Shown: positions 94 to 9,250 of the stretch, one piece after another
Layout: the number at the start of each line of letters is the position of its first letter
How positions within the stretch are numbered: the stretch's first letter is position 1
Source of the DNA: Candidatus Heimdallarchaeota archaeon
GTDB taxonomy: Archaea; Asgardarchaeota; Heimdallarchaeia; Heimdallarchaeales; Kariarchaeaceae
Assembly (NCBI GenBank): GCA_015522385.1
Contig: WAMJ01000029.1
Coordinates: 1 to 9,250 of the forward strand
Direction of reading: 5' to 3'
DNA length: 9,250 nt
The notes under the pieces: model-generated
Told to the model about the DNA's origin: nothing
Seen by the model: only the letters and a program-made list of their open reading frames with translations
Databases searched by the model: none
Program-made: the position numbers and the translations under genes

Positions 94-1428
94 TCAGAAA
101 TTGTATGCTTGAGGTTTCTTCCTAGTTCCAACGATCTTGCCTGCAGTTTCCTTGTAGTACTCTATTCTCTCCTTGGTAAATTGATAGACCTCATCATAGG
201 TCAGCTTTCTCTGGGCCACTCCATCCTTCACCGCAGCTCTAGCTACAGCCGCTGCTTCCGCAGGCATCAATCGCGGATCAGTTGGTTCAGTGATGACATT
301 GTCGAGAGAGAGTTCATCCTCTGTCAAAACTCCTGCAATTGCCTCTGCAGCTGCAATCTTCATGTTCATGGTGATCTTCGTTGCCTTGACATCGAGAGCA
401 CCCCTGAAAATTGCAGGGAATCCGAGCACATTATTGACCTGATTGTTGAAATCAGATCTGCCAGTCCCAATAATTTTGGCTCCTGCATCTATCGCATCTT
501 GCGGGAGAATCTCGGGTACAGGATTTGCAAGGGCGAATATGATTGGATTGTCTGCCATCTTCTGTATATGACGAGGTTTGAACATTCCCTTTGAACTTAC
601 ACCAATTAGGAGATCAGCACCTTCAGCAGCGTCGTCCAACTGTAGGAACTGCTTCTTGGGATTAATCTGCTCTGCCAATTCTTGCTTATACAGGTTCATG
701 TCATCATGCCTTCCATCAAAAATTGATCCAATTCGATCAATAACCTGCATGTTCTCACCCTTGACTCCCCTACCAAGTAGCATAGTGGCTATGGCTATTC
801 CAGATGCTCCTGCTCCGTGAACAACCACCTTCATATCCTCGAACTTCTTGTCCAATAGTTTTGCAGCGTTGATCGTTGCTGACAATGTGACGATGGCTGT
901 GCCCCATTGATCATCGTGGAACACCGGAATCGGCAATTTCTCGTCAAGTTTCCTCTCAATATAGAAACAGTCTGGTTTCCTAATGTCTTCAAGATTTATA
1001 CCGCCAAAATTCTGCGCCATAATCTCAACTGTCCTGATGAATTCATCCGGGTCCTTGGTATCAAGTATGAATGGCATAGAGTCCACGTTGGCGAGGGCTT
1101 TGAAGAGGATGGACTTCCCCTCCATCACTGGATATCCAGCCATTCCTATATCGCCCAGACCAAGTATTCTTGTGCCATTGGAAATAACCGCCACCGTATT
1201 TCCGACATTAGTATATTGGTACAGACTCGAAGGATTCTTTTCAATGGCTAGGCAGGCTACTGCCACACCTGGTGAGTACGCAAGGGTCAGATCTCGCGCG
1301 TTGGTTACTGAAGTCTTAGCGATGGTCTCGATCTTACCATTTCCCGGATAATTATCAGAATGGTATTCCAGAACATCAATATCAGAATATTTAGCAATAG
1401 CCTTTCCCGAAGGCTTATCATCAGTCAT
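94..1428 (-). CDS. mae: Malic enzyme (malate dehydrogenase, decarboxylating), short archaeal/bacterial form
   Basis: This cytosolic enzyme oxidatively decarboxylates L-malate to pyruvate and CO2 using NAD or NADP and a divalent metal, linking the citric-acid pool to pyruvate. At 444 residues it has the length of the short family and lacks the C-terminal phosphotransacetylase-like domain of long MaeB proteins. Visible motifs, in order: YSPGVA (51-56) with the catalytic Tyr; LGDIGMAGYPVMEGKS (91-106) with the catalytic Lys at 105; GGINLEDI (142-149) with acidic metal ligands; FHDDQWGTA (170-178); the Rossmann loop HGAGASG (204-210); ALANPVPE (299-306); and SDFNNQVNNVLGFP (325-338). IDR at 230-232, after the second Rossmann strand, places an Asp where NAD enzymes often have one, which hints at NAD use; cofactor choice cannot be settled by reading. 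ATG at 1428 is preceded by AAGGAGT on the minus strand, nine bases away, and by a TATA box. The gene is divergent from top6B, with a probable GDPD gene close behind it. Nothing looks broken. Confidence 0.96.
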   Translation of the reverse strand: MTDDKPSGKAIAKYSDIDVLEYHSDNYPGNGKIETIAKTSVTNARDLTLAYSPGVAVACLAIEKNPSSLYQYTNVGNTVAVISNGTRILGLGDIGMAGYPVMEGKSILFKALANVDSMPFILDTKDPDEFIRTVEIMAQNFGGINLEDIRKPDCFYIERKLDEKLPIPVFHDDQWGTAIVTLSATINAAKLLDKKFEDMKVVVHGAGASGIAIATMLLGRGVKGENMQVIDRIGSIFDGRHDDMNLYKQELAEQINPKKQFLQLDDAAEGADLLIGVSSKGMFKPRHIQKMADNPIIFALANPVPEILPQDAIDAGAKIIGTGRSDFNNQVNNVLGFPAIFRGALDVKATKITMNMKIAAAEAIAGVLTEDELSLDNVITEPTDPRLMPAEAAAVARAAVKDGVAQRKLTYDEVYQFTKERIEYYKETAGKIVGTRKKPQAYNF

Positions 1429-1876: not shown

Positions 1877-2005
1877 ATGAGATTGTCAGGAATCAGCAAG
1901 ATGTATATTGCTGAAGCAATCCTCAATAACCTTGAAAGCAAGATAGACGTCATAACTGAGGGAGTTAATATTGACAAAGAAACGCACCAAAAAGTCAGAC
2001 AGTAA
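1877..2005 (+). CDS. Doubtful 42-residue leader ORF overlapping the start of top6B
   Basis: An ATG at 1877 opens a 42-codon frame beginning MRLSGISKMYIAEAILNNLE and ending at TAA 2003-2005, 35 bases inside top6B in another frame. The frame is closed upstream by TGA at 1865-1867. The predicted peptide is charged, with an amphipathic helical look, and belongs to no family I recognise. There is no Shine-Dalgarno site before its ATG, but the proximal TATA box at 1826-1833 would put a transcription start only about 20 bases upstream. If translated it could couple ribosomes to the TTG start. It may equally be chance, as 42 codons is short. Confidence 0.18.
   Translation: MRLSGISKMYIAEAILNNLESKIDVITEGVNIDKETHQKVRQ
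1958..1964 (+). promoter_or_regulatory. Shine-Dalgarno site deciding the TTG start of top6B
   Basis: GAGGGAG ends six bases before TTG 1971. The reading frame is closed by TAA at 1953-1955, so only CTG 1956 or TTG 1971 could start upstream of the conserved core, and only the TTG has this spacing. The next option, GTG at 2028, would cut into the FFNENKSIAGF strap that precedes the ATPase motif. Confidence 0.7.
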
Positions 2006-5000
2006 GGCCCGAACTGCATCAGCAGCAGTGTTCTTTAATGAGAACAAGAGTATCGCAGGATTCGGTAATCCACTCAGGGCCGTATTTACATCAATTAGAG
2101 AATTAGTAGAGAACGCGCTCGACGCCTCTGAGAAGAGAAATGTGACCCCCAATATCCGAATGAAATTGCGGAGACTTACTCTAGAAGAAGTAAGTTCACT
2201 TATGGATATCGACAGGTCACGACTGAAGGACAAAAGATTAGATTTTCTTCAACTATCATGCAGAGATAATGGTGTCGGTGTGGAACGCGAGTTAATCCCT
2301 CAGCTCTTCGGAACCGTACTAGCGGGTACGAAATACGGTGCGCAGCAGACTAGAGGACGATTCGGTCTTGGGAGTAAGATGGTGCTACTCTACTCCATGT
2401 CAACACTTGATCTGCCTATTCAGATTACAACCAGACCTTATGGTCAGGATATAACATATAGAGTAAAGTTGTTGATCAACCTTGAGAAGAACCAACCAAT
2501 TATTGTCGAGGACCTCCAGTTCGAGGAGGGACACCCTGAATTCTTCGACGACTATGGTACGGAGATCATGGTCTCATTCACCGGAGACTGGGCTAAGGCC
2601 AGGAACTATGTGAAAGAGTACTTCAGACAATTAGCGATCATCACACCCTACGCAGACTTCCTCATTGAACTCCCAAAGGACAAACAGGGTGAGGACGACA
2701 TCATGGAATTCAAGAGGGTTGTGGACGACCTTCCAGACCCCCCAGAAGTGGTGCCCGTTCACCCATGGGGTACTGATGTGACAACATTTAGGAGGGAGAT
2801 GCAGCTTGCCGATCCTGAGCATAATGTTATGGAATTTCTCGTCCATAACTTCATGGGCGTAACGGAGATGTCGGCCAAGGCATTCTTCGAGGAAGTGGGA
2901 GTAGATCCATATAAGAAACCAAGCGAGCTTACAGACAAAGAGGTTCGAAGGATCGTACACGACGGATTCAACAGGGCGTTACGAGAGTCAAAGGAGGTGA
3001 AGAGAAAGAGGGATAGAGTCTTTAAATTCGATGAACCAAAGGGTGATGCACTCTCACCACTTGGGGCAGACCGTCTTCGGAAGGGGATCGAAAAGGAACT
3101 GGACCCTCTCTTCGTTGAGGCCCTGACAAGGCCTCCGAAGGCTTACGAAGGTCACCCATTCATAATTGAACTTGCGTTGGGATACGGTGGTGGAGTTTCT
3201 GCGGCTGCAGCATCCAAAGCAGTATCGTCGATCGACAATAAAATCGTCTATAGATTCGCTAATCGAATACCACTGGTTTTTGGCGCAGGGAGCGATGTGA
3301 TAACCCAAGTGGTGAACCAGATCAAGTGGAATGAGTACGGTCTAACCCGACAGTCAGAGCCACTGGCAATCGCGGTCTCGTTGGTATCAACAAAGATTCC
3401 CTTCCCTGAGACTTCGAAGGAATACATCGATAAGGTAGACGAGATAGAGGAAGAAATTAAGCTGGCAATCATGCAACTGGGTCGTAAGCTACGATCCTAT
3501 CTCAGTCGATCCCGAAGAAGGCAGAGAGAGAGGCAAAGAAGGACTAGATTCGAGAGGTACGCACCGCAGACAGTTCGGAATATCCTGTCGATCTTGGAGA
3601 AAGGAGAACTGTGGGACAAGTACACCGGAGTTCAAGCAGAGAGAGTTATCGCCGCTTTGTCATCAGGAGACCCAAGGATTGGAAGGGCTCAGTACCCCCG
3701 GTTCAGACCTATATACCTTGAACCAGTCTGGAGCTATCCGAGTCATGTTAGCAAGCTTCAGGAGAACGGGATTTACATTGTTGAACACTTCCTTAAGGAA
3801 CCCAACAACAAGCTTGCAAAAATACTGAAGTTGTCACAAGCCAAGGTCGACAAAATTAAGAGGAGAACCCTTCTTGAGGGGAGTAATGCTGGAATTGTGA
3901 AGGATTTCAATCCAGAATTCTTCATCAACCAAGAGGTGGAAAAGAGATTCCACACAAGAGAGTCTACACTGGACTTTCCCCGGTTGTCCAAGGCGTTCCC
4001 GAGGAGATGGATTAGAAACACTTGGGACTATCTCGTCACACCCAATAATCTCTTAAAAATCGTTGGGGGGTATATTCCAAAATTAGTCGAGAAGATCAAG
4101 ATGGAACTGATCCTGATAACTAGTCAGGAGCAGATGTCGGAGGAAGAAATGAGTCAGCTCAGTCAATTATTGGATGCAGACTTTTCACTTACTCCTGAAC
4201 CCGTTACGACAAATGGGATAGTTAAGGACAAAATTGACAGTACTATAGACATTGACATGAAGGAGGTCTTTGCAGCTCTTGAGCTTGACGACCCCACTGT
4301 CGCAGAGCGGCTCAAAGGTACACTTGAGATCAATGATGAAAATCCGAAGGAAGAACCTGTAGAGGTAGAACCACAGACAACAGTGTACCACGGAAAGCCC
4401 AGTCTAGAGCATATGATCCCTACATTAGAAGAACTTCTAGAGGATAAAGAAGTCAAGAAGAGGAAGATTAGCAACAAGTACGAACTACTTATCGAGATGA
4501 GTCATCCAACTAATCCCATCGATTTCACGACACTTGCAGAACTTCTAATTAGGAAATTTAAGGAAGCCATTTCAAGATACATCGAAGCAAATCCCGATTT
4601 CGCCTCTGAGCGAATTGACACGAAAGCATCTTGGCTCGATGGATATACACGTAATGCTTTCAAAAGACGAAAGATTTCGACAGTTCAAGAGCTGTTGGCC
4701 CGCGAGGACTCAGAGTTAATGGAGATAAATGAGATTCTCAGGGCCCTGATGGCTAAACTGGAAGAGTCATTGCGAAAGGACTCTACACTTATTAGAGACC
4801 TCCTTATCGATCCGGACTATGATGATCTAATCGCAGCTCTAGAGAGGTTGGACATCGTATCTCTTGAGCAGCTTGCCGCCCTGCCATCCCTAAGCATTCT
4901 GCAGGACCCGAACGCCGACCAACTGATTAATGTGATCTTGGATGGGACAAAGGAGGAGCTTATCAACAGCCTAATCCAAGAAAATTCGGTATTTTCACTT

Positions 5001-8000
5001 GAGTACCTGAAGTGGATTCCCGAAGAGTTGGAGTCAGAGATATACAGTAAAGAGATCGACGATATTAACAAGCTGCTAAGAACACCTGTGGACACGTTTT
5101 CTAAGGGAGCGGCTAAACGAGTTATTCAAGTCAAACAGAGCATCGGTACGCCACTTTTGGGAACAAAGAAGGAGAAAGAGGGTCTGAACAAGGCTGGAAT
5201 CTACTGTACCGAAGAACTTGTATTCTCTGCGGATTACTACATGAAACAAGATCTTCCTCAGGATATTAGGAAGACACTTGAGAGAATCAACTCGATATTA
5301 CTACTCCCCATCTCCGTCATCTCAAAAGAACTGGTTCGTGTAGAGGATCTACTCGTGGACGTGGGGATAAACACGGTTGGTAGATTTATAGTTTGGCCGC
5401 AACAGGAGCTGGCTACGATAACTGGATTCTCTGCTGAGTGGGTACACCTACTTCAGGAAGGGTTCTCAGAGAAGGACGTGGTCAAGAAGGCCAAGAAATT
5501 GAGTAAGGTATCAACCATACACCACTTACTGCTTGATACCGAAAAGGTAGCCCTTGAGAAAATTGGCTTCGAGACCGTAGATGACCTAGCTACCAAAAGT
5601 TGGAGGATTAACCTTCCGAAAATTGACCAAACTAAAGAATTCCATGAGGTTCGAGACATACTCCTAGGATCCATAAATCGTTTAGAGGAGATATTCACAT
5701 TAGATAAGGAGAAGAAGAACCTCAACAAGGCACTTGACACATTGGAGAAAAATGGCGTTGCCACAGTTCTCGATTTCCTCGAGGCTTCACCCACCCACCT
5801 GATCTCCCAGATTAAGACGAAGAAAGCTCGGAATGCCCTTGAATTGTTAATCATGGGAATTCAAAGCGAGGAACCAGAATCCGTTACTTCGGACTCATCG
5901 GTTTACCAAGCTATCAAACTATTCAAGATACAGGAGAAGCTTAAGCTCTCACCATCCCACCTAAGCAAGTTCAGCAATGATGACGTCGAGAATATGATTA
6001 CTGGAGGAATAAGGTCGATCTACCAACTCCTGTCCGCTGGGTTTTCAGACATAGCAAAATTGCTTAACAAGAGCACAAAGGAGGTTGAGAAGCTCTATAA
6101 CACGTCGACGTTAAGACTTACAGGTACTCCAATTGCTAAGTACGATAGCAAGGGTAAACCCATCTCCATCTTCAAATTTGAGTTCGAGGGTGTGATGCAC
6201 TTCACGGAGAGGGATATCAATGCCATCCTCAACTCGGGATATAGTACCATAGAAAGTCTGTACTACCAATCAGACAGTAGGACATTTGAAGTATATGGGT
6301 TATCATGGGAGGTGATCAAACATGTCAAGGCCCTATTCAGATCACCGTCAGTCCTCATCTCATGGAAGGAAGAGATCCCGGAGGAAGAACTACCCCCACT
6401 ACCCGAAGGAGAAGAGGACAATAGACCGCGTTTTAGGTACGTCACACTTACAAGTGATGAGCTTAAAAAGCTCTCAAAAGCAAAACAAACCAGGGTAATT
6501 GACTTCCTCACGCTACCCACAGAGAAACTCGCCAGCATCCTTGGATGGGATGTAGAAAAGACGAAAAAACTGCAGACATCCACGATTCTCCAAGAAGTCG
6601 GAATAGAGCTTGAGGATGTGAATCTATTCAGGGAGTCTGATCTCAAGATACTTGCAGAGATGAATCTCAGCACGGTTGAGGACATCTATTTCTCAACGTT
6701 TGAGGACACTTGGAATGAGAATATACTCCCTTGGGAGGCTATCAAGACCATCAAGAATATTCTTCGATTACCCATTCAGTACGTTGAGGAAGAGCTATCC
6801 AAGGAGATTGTCGAACTGCTCTTAGAAAATAAGATCATGACCATCCTTGATTTCCTTCTTACTGGAGATCCCATCCTTTCTCAGAAGACTGGACTCCCAG
6901 CGGAAAGGTTTGAGAATCTCAAACATGCCTTGGACTTCACAACTCTTGTAGATACATTTGATAAGTCTGTCTGCTTTATTCCAGATGTCAACTATTATCA
7001 TGCAAAGAACCTAATTAAGGAGAAAATCGAGAAGGTTGCCGACTTCATCCTCGCACCCAACAAGACCATAGCCAAGTTGATGGAGATGAAGGAATCTGAG
7101 GTAAAACTGATCAAGGAGAGTATCTCTAGGAACTCAATATCAGAGAGAGAGGCAGAAGAGGGCATCAGCCTTCGGGATCTCAGGATATTTTCAAGAGCAG
7201 AAATACGCTCTATATCTAAGTCAGGTGTTTTTGAGAGCCGAGAGATCAAGACAGCACAAGAGTTGATGTACCACGTCTCTGAGTCAAGTTTCTACAGCGA
7301 CCCCGTGATTTTCAAGAAGATTCATGATATGCAGAGGGTTCTGAGCATAGACCTAGAACGCTTCAACTTTATAACAAAGGGTGATTTGAAAGCACTTCGG
7401 AAAGAGAATATCAACACTGTTGAAGACATCCTCTTCATCTCAGTGGATGTCTCATATGATCCCTCACTCGACCATATAATGTCTTATCTATCCAATATCC
7501 TGATGGATCTTCGACCTCTAATAGCAATGGGCAGCCTCCCAGCAACTAGCGCGTCCACCATGGAGATCGAAGGTACGCTTCTTGATGCGTGGATAAATAA
7601 TGATGAAAGACTTCATCCTGAATTCAGAGATAAGGTCTATGACATTCTCCTCTTGCCCCTAAAAGCAGTGAGAATTGGACAGCTCCTCCACGAGCTGACA
7701 GAAGATGTGGAGAACTATACTTTAGCAGATGCATGTCTTATCTACGGGGAATCTGCAGACAACCCACTCAGCATAATGAAGGAGGCTCTGTCAACCTCAG
7801 GATCACTCATCACTATTATCAATGAGTCAAGGACACCAATCACGGTCCTAGACCTAACGCCCAAGGGGATTAGAACCCTCCTTGATCACAATATCACGAC
7901 ACTCGAATCCTTGATTTTGAAGGATGTCAAATTCCTTTCAAATATAACTGGAGAGTCACAAAAATTCTTCAGGGAGGTAATTTCAGAGTATCGGTATGGT

Positions 8001-9250
8001 AGTTATAAGCAAAAACTGGAGACGTTTGGAATAGATCTTTTGAGAATATTGACAACTGATGAAGCAATAACTACGCTAATAGGCATGGGAATCAACTTCA
8101 TTGAGCAGTCAATTTCTCTTAATAGCCACCGAGTCCCAGAGGCAGAGACCATCAGGAACTACCTGCTAGGTTCAAACATCTTTCTAATAGGCTACCCCGG
8201 AGAACTTGAACTTACCAGGAATAAAGGTGCACAAACCGTGCTGGAGTCCCTCGTCACCTTGAGGATCATGGGAATGGACCCTATGTCTATTCTCGATATT
8301 GCTATTTTAGGGTTCAGAGCAAGGTACTACTATGCCCTTCCTCTTAAGAAGAAGAAAGCTTTCTATGGTGATAATCATATCCTTTGCATTCAGGATTTGG
8401 TATCTTACCATAACGCATATCCAGAGGTAAAACTGGACAAGGAAGATTCTGCACTAGTAGCAAAGATGTCTGAATCAAGCCTATATCTGAACATTCCTGG
8501 CGACCCTCTAGAAGAACTCGTAATCAAGCACAGGTGTTCCCGGATAGTCGATGCAGTAAGCTATCCATTAATCGGAGACCTCTTAGATCCCATCCGTGAT
8601 GAGATCAAGAAGTCAGGTAGAGTCCCAATTGTTGAAGAAGTTAGACTCCCACTCTCAATCCTGAGGTACATTTCAGGATCCACCTACAGGCGGTTTGGAG
8701 ATATCGAGCTTACTTTGCAGGATATAATCTCCTACCCACGTCTGATGGATGAGTATATTGGTGTTAAGAAGAACGTGCTCGAAATAGCGTTCAAGGAATT
8801 GAACATCCCATTATCTAGACTTGTCGCTAATGGAAGACAGATTGGAATGATCGAGGGGATTTCCAGACTGAGCTCTCTCATCTGTCACCTACCCCACATC
8901 CATAGCCAGAACCCAGAGGTATTCAAGGAGATCATGATTAATCTGAACTCTGAGCTCAGGGTGGTTAGTGATGCACTCTTTGACCAAGAGAAGATGAGCA
9001 TTATATCGACTGCCTTCGGAACAGAAGTCTATGGATTCCATGAACTTTGGGCCATTTCTACCACAAATTACAAAGCCATTGCAAAATCGGATTCAACGCT
9101 GGCACGTAATGTGAAAACAATTATTGCAAGGAGCTTCTTAAGTGTAGCATCCGTCACAGATTTCACCAGTGAAGAGATCTGGACTCTCTGGAGAAACGGG
9201 ATATATACCGTAGCGGAGTTCCTTCTACAATCAGCTCATCTCTCAATAGA
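1971..9250 (+). CDS. top6B: Giant DNA topoisomerase VI subunit B with very long helical-repeat extension (3' end outside window)
   Basis: Top6B dimerises on ATP binding and works with Top6A to pass one DNA duplex through another and relax supercoils. The first ~570 residues look intact. Bergerat ATPase motifs: ELVENALDA (44-52; general-base Glu44, Mg-binding Asn48), RDNGVG (98-103), TRGRFGLGSK (127-136). HPWGTD (264-269) follows, then an H2TH segment near 285-345, the strongly conserved TRPPKAYEGHPF (386-397), and the transducer with VSTKIPF, whose Lys475 is the ATP-contacting switch lysine. The transducer helix ends in an Arg-rich stretch (505-529). Ordinary Top6B is about 530 residues, or somewhat longer with a C-terminal Ig-like domain. 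Here the same frame stays open for at least 1,856 more residues, giving over 2,426 residues and roughly 275 kDa. The extension consists of diverged HhH-like helical units. No frameshift or stop interrupts the frame from core to window end. No Top6A, usually a neighbour, is visible. Core identity is near certain; the role of the extension is unknown. Confidence 0.95.
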   Translation, partial: MTKKRTKKSDSKARTASAAVFFNENKSIAGFGNPLRAVFTSIRELVENALDASEKRNVTPNIRMKLRRLTLEEVSSLMDIDRSRLKDKRLDFLQLSCRDNGVGVERELIPQLFGTVLAGTKYGAQQTRGRFGLGSKMVLLYSMSTLDLPIQITTRPYGQDITYRVKLLINLEKNQPIIVEDLQFEEGHPEFFDDYGTEIMVSFTGDWAKARNYVKEYFRQLAIITPYADFLIELPKDKQGEDDIMEFKRVVDDLPDPPEVVPVHPWGTDVTTFRREMQLADPEHNVMEFLVHNFMGVTEMSAKAFFEEVGVDPYKKPSELTDKEVRRIVHDGFNRALRESKEVKRKRDRVFKFDEPKGDALSPLGADRLRKGIEKELDPLFVEALTRPPKAYEGHPFIIELALGYGGGVSAAAASKAVSSIDNKIVYRFANRIPLVFGAGSDVITQVVNQIKWNEYGLTRQSEPLAIAVSLVSTKIPFPETSKEYIDKVDEIEEEIKLAIMQLGRKLRSYLSRSRRRQRERQRRTRFERYAPQTVRNILSILEKGELWDKYTGVQAERVIAALSSGDPRIGRAQYPRFRPIYLEPVWSYPSHVSKLQENGIYIVEHFLKEPNNKLAKILKLSQAKVDKIKRRTLLEGSNAGIVKDFNPEFFINQEVEKRFHTRESTLDFPRLSKAFPRRWIRNTWDYLVTPNNLLKIVGGYIPKLVEKIKMELILITSQEQMSEEEMSQLSQLLDADFSLTPEPVTTNGIVKDKIDSTIDIDMKEVFAALELDDPTVAERLKGTLEINDENPKEEPVEVEPQTTVYHGKPSLEHMIPTLEELLEDKEVKKRKISNKYELLIEMSHPTNPIDFTTLAELLIRKFKEAISRYIEANPDFASERIDTKASWLDGYTRNAFKRRKISTVQELLAREDSELMEINEILRALMAKLEESLRKDSTLIRDLLIDPDYDDLIAALERLDIVSLEQLAALPSLSILQDPNADQLINVILDGTKEELINSLIQENSVFSLEYLKWIPEELESEIYSKEIDDINKLLRTPVDTFSKGAAKRVIQVKQSIGTPLLGTKKEKEGLNKAGIYCTEELVFSADYYMKQDLPQDIRKTLERINSILLLPISVISKELVRVEDLLVDVGINTVGRFIVWPQQELATITGFSAEWVHLLQEGFSEKDVVKKAKKLSKVSTIHHLLLDTEKVALEKIGFETVDDLATKSWRINLPKIDQTKEFHEVRDILLGSINRLEEIFTLDKEKKNLNKALDTLEKNGVATVLDFLEASPTHLISQIKTKKARNALELLIMGIQSEEPESVTSDSSVYQAIKLFKIQEKLKLSPSHLSKFSNDDVENMITGGIRSIYQLLSAGFSDIAKLLNKSTKEVEKLYNTSTLRLTGTPIAKYDSKGKPISIFKFEFEGVMHFTERDINAILNSGYSTIESLYYQSDSRTFEVYGLSWEVIKHVKALFRSPSVLISWKEEIPEEELPPLPEGEEDNRPRFRYVTLTSDELKKLSKAKQTRVIDFLTLPTEKLASILGWDVEKTKKLQTSTILQEVGIELEDVNLFRESDLKILAEMNLSTVEDIYFSTFEDTWNENILPWEAIKTIKNILRLPIQYVEEELSKEIVELLLENKIMTILDFLLTGDPILSQKTGLPAERFENLKHALDFTTLVDTFDKSVCFIPDVNYYHAKNLIKEKIEKVADFILAPNKTIAKLMEMKESEVKLIKESISRNSISEREAEEGISLRDLRIFSRAEIRSISKSGVFESREIKTAQELMYHVSESSFYSDPVIFKKIHDMQRVLSIDLERFNFITKGDLKALRKENINTVEDILFISVDVSYDPSLDHIMSYLSNILMDLRPLIAMGSLPATSASTMEIEGTLLDAWINNDERLHPEFRDKVYDILLLPLKAVRIGQLLHELTEDVENYTLADACLIYGESADNPLSIMKEALSTSGSLITIINESRTPITVLDLTPKGIRTLLDHNITTLESLILKDVKFLSNITGESQKFFREVISEYRYGSYKQKLETFGIDLLRILTTDEAITTLIGMGINFIEQSISLNSHRVPEAETIRNYLLGSNIFLIGYPGELELTRNKGAQTVLESLVTLRIMGMDPMSILDIAILGFRARYYYALPLKKKKAFYGDNHILCIQDLVSYHNAYPEVKLDKEDSALVAKMSESSLYLNIPGDPLEELVIKHRCSRIVDAVSYPLIGDLLDPIRDEIKKSGRVPIVEEVRLPLSILRYISGSTYRRFGDIELTLQDIISYPRLMDEYIGVKKNVLEIAFKELNIPLSRLVANGRQIGMIEGISRLSSLICHLPHIHSQNPEVFKEIMINLNSELRVVSDALFDQEKMSIISTAFGTEVYGFHELWAISTTNYKAIAKSDSTLARNVKTIIARSFLSVASVTDFTSEEIWTLWRNGIYTVAEFLLQSAHLSI
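3684..9250 (+). other. Top6B extension: array of about twenty HhH-like helical units (protein-level repeat region)
   Basis: Residues ~572-2426 of the giant Top6B form a repeat region visible only at protein level. Units are roughly 50-120 residues apart and share a core like L-x3-(N/G)-I-x-T-V-x-D-(F/L)-L, then 5-10 residues, L-x-x-I-x-(G)-x-S-x3-V-x-x-L. Clear cores: NGIYIVEHFL (599-608), ISTVQELL (902-909), AGIYCTEEL (1075-1083), VGINTVGRF (1131-1139), IGFETVDDL (1198-1206), NGVATVLDFL (1261-1270), GGIRSIYQLL (1345-1354), SGYSTIESL (1422-1430), NLSTVEDIYF (1565-1574), MTILDFLL (1623-1630), IEKVADFIL (1686-1694), INTVEDILF (1814-1822), NITTLESLIL (1974-1983), NGIYTVAEFL (2409-2418). The pattern matches the second half of RadA N-terminal or DUF4332-type HhH domains (GIxTVEDL..P.ELA.ITG.S). 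The Gly-rich hairpin of DNA-binding HhH is mostly missing, so protein-protein scaffolding is as possible as DNA binding. Acidic linkers at 786-804 and 1466-1486 split it into three blocks. No transmembrane segment is seen. Confidence 0.7.

What the first reader, a model, noticed from the sequence alone, without database searches (positions are those of the whole stretch)
1971..9250. Giant topoisomerase VI B subunit (>2,426 residues) in one uninterrupted frame
The N-terminal ~570 residues carry the complete Top6B set of motifs, and the same frame continues without a stop for over 1,850 codons to the end of the window. Known Top6B proteins end soon after the transducer or carry a small Ig-like domain. 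A four- to five-fold enlarged subunit would be a new architecture for type IIB topoisomerases, and could turn a strand-passage enzyme into a chromosome-scale DNA-organising machine. The size and core identity are read directly; novelty is from my knowledge of the family.
Basis: partly seen in the sequence, partly recalled or inferred. Interest (0 to 1): 0.92.

Follow-up and report, generated by a model that had tools for sequence, protein, structure and literature searches.

The report
Giant DNA topoisomerase subunit in Asgard archaea
One half of a common DNA-untangling enzyme has, in the archaea thought closest to eukaryotes, grown to about seven times its usual size by adding a long chain of small helical modules, and the enlarged form is kept across related species, so it very probably does something useful.

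Summary
Window 1971-9248 is one open frame of 2,426 codons; its first ~544 residues are a complete topoisomerase VI B subunit (Top6B). A 75% identical relative has 3,533 aa, and 27 of 62 fetched loci hold a complete Top6B frame of 2,194-4,305 aa, each followed by Top6A. The extension is an ancient array of ~50-residue helix-hairpin-helix (HhH) modules, ending in a Lys-rich tail in seven of the larger relatives checked. HhH-extended Top6Bs form one clade.

Two further results: Top6A beside the giant Top6B has an extra N-terminal domain, ubiquitin-like in Borr/Sif and probably elsewhere; and 49 of 51 tested genomes with an HhH-extended Topo VI also have gyrase or a second, short Topo VI.

The 'DNA-organising machine' reading is only partly supported: giant arrays have lost the canonical GhG DNA-binding hairpin and many are net acidic. 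I favour a specialised, tethered Topo VI whose arm is a spacer and docking scaffold. That mechanism is inference. New variant of a known enzyme; no paper found describes it.

The parts
1971..3602 (+). Top6B catalytic core (residues 1-544): GHKL ATPase, middle region, transducer (PF09239, residues 356-523 = 3036-3539)
   Evidence: ATPase N-box, G1, G2 and switch-lysine columns invariant in 27 aligned sequences, window included (motif names recalled)
3603..9248 (+). C-terminal extension (residues 545-2426, continues beyond the window), array of divergent HhH modules
3708..9239 (+). span of the recognised ~50-residue HhH units (residues 580-2423): 14 units at domain E<=0.01, 16 at E<=1
   Evidence: shuffled, reversed and core controls gave 0 at E<=0.01
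4131..4391 (+). low-confidence, probably disordered linker inside the arm (residues about 721-807)
   Evidence: most of model residues 176-262 have pLDDT under 50
6756..6953 (+). best-matched module (residues 1596-1661), fold like the RAD51C/RAD51D N-terminal domain
94..1428 (-). neighbouring gene, malic enzyme, pointing away from top6B; also upstream in 5 related loci but there in the same direction as top6B; not thought to belong to the system

Best explanation
The window holds the first two thirds of a top6B gene for a giant type IIB topoisomerase subunit of Heimdallarchaeia and relatives (the window's own lineage is probably near Kariarchaeaceae, judged by names of relatives at 41-44% identity). 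SHOWN: complete Top6B core; array of HhH-derived modules; one clade for the extended form; Top6A encoded directly downstream in relatives; purifying selection. INFERRED mechanism: the core with Top6A does ordinary ATP-driven double-strand passage. The arm, a chain of degenerate, often acidic (HhH)2 modules, is a long spacer and docking scaffold for partner proteins, much as NusA's acidic HhH repeat AR2 docks SuhB or the RNA polymerase alpha CTD. In the largest forms a Lys-rich tail at its far tip grips DNA, so the enzyme is tethered to chromosomes and biased toward a special task such as decatenating sister chromosomes, while gyrase or a second, canonical Topo VI handles bulk supercoiling.
For: Core. 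Array: profile self-comparison of 147 tiles, 1,101 non-self hits (probability 5 or more) against 0 for column-shuffled tiles; a repeat model trained on these proteins finds 375 units in 21 of them at E<=0.01 (table sum; some of the 21 are near-duplicates) and 0 in 63 control sequences; HhH Pfam families over cut-off, RAD51D_N in 29 of 29 aligned extensions; two helical-module models, mean pLDDT 82.5 and 85.6; weak profile hits to RNAP alpha CTD (best 6e-4), NusA (0.009) and RAD51D (0.06). Docking rather than DNA reading: hxGhG hairpins 35 in 7 proteins of the ~1,120-aa group (1.1 expected) but 2 in 3 (0.3), 3 in 8 (2.2), 2 in 3 (1.1) and 0 in 11 (3.3) in Borr/Sif, Hod, Kari and Heimdall giants; extension net charge -54 in the window; last 100-120 residues +22 to +41 in P0002, P0003, P0004, P0016, P0024, P0026 and L013. 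NusA AR2 is an acidic-repeat dual HhH domain that docks proteins (PMC6614801, passages). Operon: Top6A follows in 27 of 27 loci with a complete giant frame; active-site Tyr kept in 17 of 17 aligned Top6A rows (motif recalled). Division of labour: gyrase in 38 of 39 single-giant genomes tested, 0 of 11 with long plus short Topo VI.
Confidence: 0.55

Rival explanations
1. Topo V-like clamp: the HhH array itself wraps or tracks DNA and makes Topo VI processive or lets it gather distant segments.
Against: GhG hairpins are at or near chance level in giant arrays. Window extension net -54, pI 5.2, whereas Topo V offers DNA a positively charged track.
Confidence: 0.25
2. Neutral ratchet: the array grew by module duplication without an adaptive role and is kept only because it must stay folded and soluble.
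For: Length varies widely between clades (1,109-4,305 aa) and is shorter in the 1.4 Mb RS678-type assembly (2,194 aa). Extension dN/dS is higher than that of the core in six of seven pairs with an estimate, and in two of three extension parts in the seventh.
Against: Lengths are near constant within a clade (Hod 2,312-2,324; Heimdallarchaeaceae 4,174-4,305); extension dN/dS 0.05-0.17 in six Heimdallarchaeaceae pairs, one of them saturated in dS; 25-42% identity to the window over about 1,120-1,165 residues of the arm in Kari- and Heimdallarchaeaceae-type proteins.
Confidence: 0.12
3. Polyprotein: the core and arm are one gene but are cut into separate proteins.
For: A ~85-residue disordered linker lies early in the arm.
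Against: HhH modules lie on both sides of the linker. Protease sites were not looked for.
Confidence: 0.05
4. Assembly or gene-calling artefact.
For: MAG data; one relative has a frameshift at the core/arm border (L025) and two Hod-type assemblies that are a single long contig or chromosome have shorter arms (L032, L069).
Against: 27 complete giant frames in named assemblies, among them the Heimdallarchaeum endolithica complete chromosome CP084167 (4,305 aa); purifying selection.
Confidence: 0.02

Closest known systems
Archaeal DNA topoisomerase VI B subunit (Saccharolobus shibatae type, PDB 2zbk/1mx0)
   Same: GHKL ATPase and transducer, aligned at E 1.4e-97; works with Top6A, which in giant relatives is the next gene
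   Different: The solved chain has 530 residues; here a further ~2,990 residues follow the core (by P0002)
Methanosarcina mazei-type Top6B with Ig-like C-terminal domain
   Same: Lineage-specific C-terminal extension in an archaeon that also has gyrase; Villain et al. 2022 (PMC9348778, section 11 read whole, other parts as passages) proposed such extensions evolved alongside gyrase, Asgards included
   Different: About 100 residues and an Ig-like fold there; here thousands of residues, predicted almost all-helical in the part modelled. In what I read that paper speaks of a 'globular domain' in Asgards and gives no giant size
Topoisomerase V (Methanopyrus kandleri)
   Same: Topoisomerase domain followed by tandem (HhH)2 domains in one chain (PMC9489208, abstract and passages)
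   Different: Type IC core, unlike Top6B; 12 (HhH)2 domains; positively charged DNA track, where giant arrays lack GhG and are mostly acidic to neutral
NusA acidic repeats AR1/AR2, RNA polymerase alpha CTD, RAD51-paralogue N-terminal domain
   Same: Same small dual-HhH fold by sequence profile and, for RAD51 paralogues and alpha CTD, by predicted structure
   Different: One or two modules there, 14 or more here; no topoisomerase attached
Long Top6B of Lokiarchaeia-like genomes (~1,100-1,250 aa)
   Same: Enlarged Asgard Top6B; 18 of 24 such genomes tested have gyrase
   Different: Distant in the tree; much of the extra sequence lies before or inside the core; no HhH family over cut-off in the two scanned

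Membership tests
Topoisomerase VI subunit B (Top6B) | Scores over the curated equivalog cut-off | tested here: met
   NF003218 451.5 vs 274; TIGR01052 384.5 vs 380.7
Topoisomerase VI subunit B (Top6B) | GHKL ATPase motifs and switch lysine present and conserved | tested here: met
   Invariant E44, N48, D51, D99, G101, G129, G132, G134, K475 in 27 aligned sequences, window included (motif names recalled)
Topoisomerase VI subunit B (Top6B) | Transducer domain | tested here: met
   PF09239 E 4.3e-54, residues 356-523
Topoisomerase VI subunit B (Top6B) | Partner Top6A with active-site Tyr | tested here: met
   In relatives only: downstream in 27 of 27 loci with a complete giant frame; Tyr in 17 of 17 aligned rows (motif recalled). 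Lies beyond this window
Topoisomerase VI subunit B (Top6B) | ATP-dependent strand passage | not testable with these tools
   needs protein
Topoisomerase V | Type IC topoisomerase catalytic domain | tested here: not met
   Pfam and NCBIfam scans list Top6B and ATPase families for the core and no topoisomerase V
Topoisomerase V | Tandem (HhH)2 array | tested here: met
   (HhH-derived; canonical GhG lost)
Topoisomerase V | Positively charged DNA track | tested here: inconclusive
   Net charge of the window extension -54, pI 5.2; surface charge was not mapped on the models
Ig-like C-terminal domain Top6B (M. mazei type) | Ig-like beta domain after the transducer | tested here: inconclusive
   Window residues 546-2426 are modelled as almost entirely helical with a few short strands; the last ~1,100 residues lie outside the window and were not modelled
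Canonical DNA-binding HhH array | hxGhG hairpins | tested here: not met
   1 match in the window's extension

The most novel reading that the evidence does not exclude
Heimdallarchaeia and relatives run a two-part chromosome-untangling hub with no known counterpart: a Topo VI whose B subunit is a very long docking arm that recruits replication, segregation or chromatin proteins, and whose A subunit carries a ubiquitin-like domain that ties strand passage to the cell's ubiquitin-type machinery. It was kept specialised because gyrase or a second Topo VI took over bulk supercoiling. This would be a eukaryote-like mode of topoisomerase regulation in the archaea nearest to eukaryotes.
Probability: 0.2. 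Interest if true: 0.92.

Novelty: new variant of a known kind. Interest (0 to 1): 0.72.

Why it matters
Topo VI is a near-universal archaeal enzyme and a relative of the meiotic Spo11 machinery (recalled), and its B subunit was thought to end soon after the transducer or in a small extra domain. A conserved 2,200-4,300-residue form in the archaeal lineage nearest to eukaryotes gives a second, separate case (after Topo V) of a topoisomerase fused to an HhH array. It makes an open idea testable: that Topo VI was specialised when gyrase, or a second Topo VI, took over general supercoiling. The ubiquitin-like domain on its Top6A partner would link DNA topology to Asgard ubiquitin-like systems.

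Tried and rejected
A simple 'HhH means DNA-binding arm' reading was my first model; it was weakened by the charge and GhG tests. In one search the printed count 'GxG 0 of 383' used a column index off by one and is not used; the per-column table (G 37% at column 39, 1% at column 41) and one search are.

Lokiarchaeia-like long Top6Bs were considered as members of the same group and rejected: distant in the tree, no HhH family over cut-off in the two scanned.

The two short Hod-type arms (L032, 1,247 aa; L069, 1,431 aa) first looked like natural short forms. They match L034 up to its residues 1,201 and 1,387 and then stop; G016, the genome of L032, has no Top6A hit, and L069 ends in a stretch like an unrelated enzyme, OTCace, just under that family's cut-off, so a misjoin or truncation is likely. 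This is not proved.

On checking the draft I found that the malic enzyme gene, upstream of top6B in five relatives, runs there in the same direction as top6B and not away from it as in the window; the draft had called it a shared divergent neighbour.

The first genome-contig scan with the single protein found nothing; the alignment query found 62 loci. Foldseek gave no hit at E<=0.001. No whole genome is held for the window. Two protein-database searches and one paper search were left unused.
Full report
OBSERVATION. The frame from TTG 1971 to 9248 has 2,426 codons without a stop and is open at the window's end. Residues 6-544 are a full Top6B: NF003218 451.5 bits (cut-off 274), TIGR01052 384.5 (380.7), PF09239 transducer, S. 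shibatae Top6B against residues 12-565 at E 1.4e-97. ATPase and switch-lysine positions are invariant in 27 aligned sequences, window included (motif names recalled). Upstream, on the other strand, lies a malic enzyme gene (94-1428).

IT IS REAL AND CONSERVED. A search of 5.8 billion proteins returned 27 homologues (only the 7,983 candidates sharing most words were scored), all with the Top6B transducer family in their precomputed Pfam list; the best, P0002, is 75% identical over the whole query and 3,533 aa long, and others run to 4,210 aa. A scan of genome contigs with an alignment of the window and 26 of these gave 62 loci. Of the Top6B frames in the fetched loci 37 are 2,000 aa or more and 27 of these are closed by stops on both sides (one contains some unread letters): 2,286-2,297 aa in Borrarchaeum/Sifarchaeum, 2,312-2,324 in Hodarchaeales-type genomes, 2,194 in the small RS678 assembly, 3,473-3,573 in three loci of the window's wider (Kari-type) group, 4,174-4,305 in Heimdallarchaeaceae-type genomes, including the complete chromosome CP084167. 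A further group has complete forms of 1,109-1,123 aa; I leave it unnamed and call it the ~1,120-aa group. Group names are mine, from record titles and protein names of some members and from the tree. The window has one 2-copy, 14-base tandem repeat and two short two-copy direct repeats in the extension. Extension dN/dS is 0.05-0.17 in six Heimdallarchaeaceae-type pairs (one saturated in dS) against 0.02-0.05 for their cores, and 0.23-0.36 in one Borrarchaeum pair (core 0.085); three of ten pairs were too diverged for an estimate in the extension.

DOES THE ARM BIND DNA? Two tests speak against a simple yes. (1) The canonical hxGhG hairpin occurs 35 times in 7 proteins of the ~1,120-aa group (1.1 expected from shuffles), but 2 in 3 Borr/Sif (0.3), 3 in 8 Hod (2.2), 2 in 3 Kari (1.1) and 0 in 11 Heimdallarchaeaceae-type proteins (3.3); in the repeat alignment of 383 units the first glycine of the second hairpin is kept in 37% and the second in 1%. 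A relaxed hairpin without the second glycine stays enriched in all five groups (53 vs 9.4, 14 vs 4.6, 57 vs 22.2, 28 vs 13.3, 90 vs 45.4), so the fold's turn is kept even where the DNA signature is gone. (2) The extension without its last 120 residues is acidic in the window (net -54, pI 5.2) and in P0002, P0003, P0004 and P0016 (-60 to -132), but only -16 and -21 in P0024 and P0026 and +32 in L013; group means are -67 Kari, -31 Hod, -17 Borr/Sif, -5 in the ~1,120-aa group and -0.5 Heimdallarchaeaceae-type. Against this, the last 100-120 residues are strongly basic (+22 to +41) in seven of the larger proteins checked (P0002, P0003, P0004, P0016, P0024, P0026, L013); they are +11 in L043 and only +2 to +7 in the Borr/Sif, Hod and RS678 examples. 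An acidic-repeat dual HhH domain with a proven docking role exists: NusA AR2, which binds SuhB and can bind the RNAP alpha CTD (PMC6614801, passages). A topoisomerase whose (HhH)2 array wraps DNA also exists: Topo V (PMC9489208, abstract and passages).

ORIGIN. In a maximum-likelihood tree of 80 Top6B cores the HhH-extended forms fall in one clade of 57 rows (support 100/99), with a 547-aa Top6B (L072, a long branch whose place the tool calls unsure) next to it (100/96). Loci L010, L029, L049, L054, L061 and L068 and rows with under 380 core residues were left out of the tree. Rows cut by contig ends are in the clade by core sequence only; the array was checked in those given. The midpoint root is for drawing only. 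Lokiarchaeia-like long Top6Bs are elsewhere in the tree, and the two scanned had no HhH family over cut-off.

COMPANY. Top6A follows on the same strand in 27 of 27 loci with a complete giant frame; the active-site Tyr is kept in 17 of 17 aligned Top6A rows (motif recalled). In giant-type operons Top6A is longer at its N-terminus by some 80-100 residues. In Borrarchaeum and Sifarchaeum this stretch passes Pfam's cut-offs for Rad60-SLD (29.8 and 30.2 vs 23.8) and ubiquitin (27.4 and 26.7 vs 25.4); the five other Top6A proteins in that scan (Kari, Heimdall, Hod) had no such hit. Their N-termini align to it at 15-29% identity. A profile of all 10 finds ubiquitin and ubiquitin-like proteins such as NEDD8 in the 60 best PDB hits shown of 180 (tetra-ubiquitin 7e-8 as a sum over repeats, single ubiquitin variants from 0.002, plain ubiquitin about 0.14-0.2), but since that profile includes the two Borr/Sif rows it does not by itself prove the domain in the other groups. 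The stretch is missing from the short paralogue's Top6A and from the ~1,120-aa group's Top6A aligned.

DIVISION OF LABOUR. In a phylum-wide search 215 of 227 genomes had Top6B (its match list was cut, so frame lengths of weaker ones were read for 40 genomes). Of the single-giant genomes 39 were tested for GyrA (five more, G041, G042, G044, G046, G052, were not given to the call; some of the 39 have frames cut by contig ends or a frameshift): 38 have gyrase, the exception being a 1.4 Mb assembly (G005). Of 11 genomes with a long plus a short Topo VI none has gyrase. One ~1,120-aa-group genome (G064) showed neither a short Top6B nor gyrase. So 49 of 51 have a second type II enzyme. These are perhaps one or two evolutionary events, so the nominal p-value is not evidence by itself. 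Of 24 Lokiarchaeia-like genomes 18 have gyrase and 6 do not (G085, G086, G088, G095, G099, G118). The pattern fits the proposal of Villain et al. (PMC9348778, section 11) that Top6B extensions in gyrase-bearing archaea mark specialisation, and extends it: where gyrase is missing, a canonical Topo VI stands in.

NOVELTY. Full-text searches found no paper that describes a giant or HhH-extended Top6B; most of the listed papers I saw only as listings, and PMC11302465, PMC12395588, PMC8185306, PMC10307638, PMC5484517 and PMC12188315 only as passages. The library lacks most subscription papers, and one paper on Topo VI diversity was not held. Wu et al. 2022 (PMC8813620; passages) have a figure of Asgard proteins over 3,000 aa; the main text never uses the word topoisomerase, and the figure is not held, so the Heimdallarchaeum protein may be in it. 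Databases name some relatives 'DNA topoisomerase VI subunit B'.

VERDICT. A true Top6B by every criterion I could test, with an architecture not described in print as far as I could search: a new variant of a known kind. That it is one conserved giant subunit is near certain (about 0.97). That the arm is a docking and tethering device is my best guess (about 0.55); a Topo V-like DNA clamp is the main rival (0.25).

Noticed in passing
L033 22851-24239, L048 13458-14873; also Top6A of L001, L002, L008, L011, L013, L016, L034, L050: Top6A next to giant Top6B carries an extra N-terminal domain: ubiquitin-like over Pfam cut-offs in Borr/Sif; same-position domain aligning at 15-29% in Kari/Heimdall/Hod, with no Pfam hit of its own in the five of these scanned.
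   Followed up: partly
genomes: HhH-extended Topo VI is accompanied by gyrase (38 of 39 single-giant genomes tested) or by a short Topo VI without gyrase (11 of 11); G005 and G064 show neither.
   Followed up: partly
GyrA frames in G009, G010, G021, G043, G055: GyrA matches are split at the same place by some 1,300 bases inside one open frame of 939-1,319 aa, as an intein would do.
   Followed up: no
many genomes between G181 and G226: Three Top6B matches in many of these genomes (four in G205), with frames of about 440-760 aa where listed.
   Followed up: no
L079-L082: Lokiarchaeia-like Top6Bs of about 1,100-1,250 aa are enlarged in another way (much of it before or inside the core).
   Followed up: partly
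L025 near 6753: Single frameshift at the core/array border; the array continues in another frame almost to its end. Probably a sequencing error.
   Followed up: partly
L032 and L069: Two Hod-type assemblies that are a single long contig or chromosome have giant Top6B cut short (1,247 and 1,431 aa); the genome of one lacks a Top6A hit, the other frame ends in an OTCace-like stretch. Likely misjoins.
   Followed up: partly
window 94-1428 (-): Malic enzyme gene upstream of top6B, pointing away from it; in L002, L007, L008, L009 and L025 it is also upstream but in the same direction as top6B, and it was not found upstream in L003 or L011. Probably an inversion in one lineage.
   Followed up: partly
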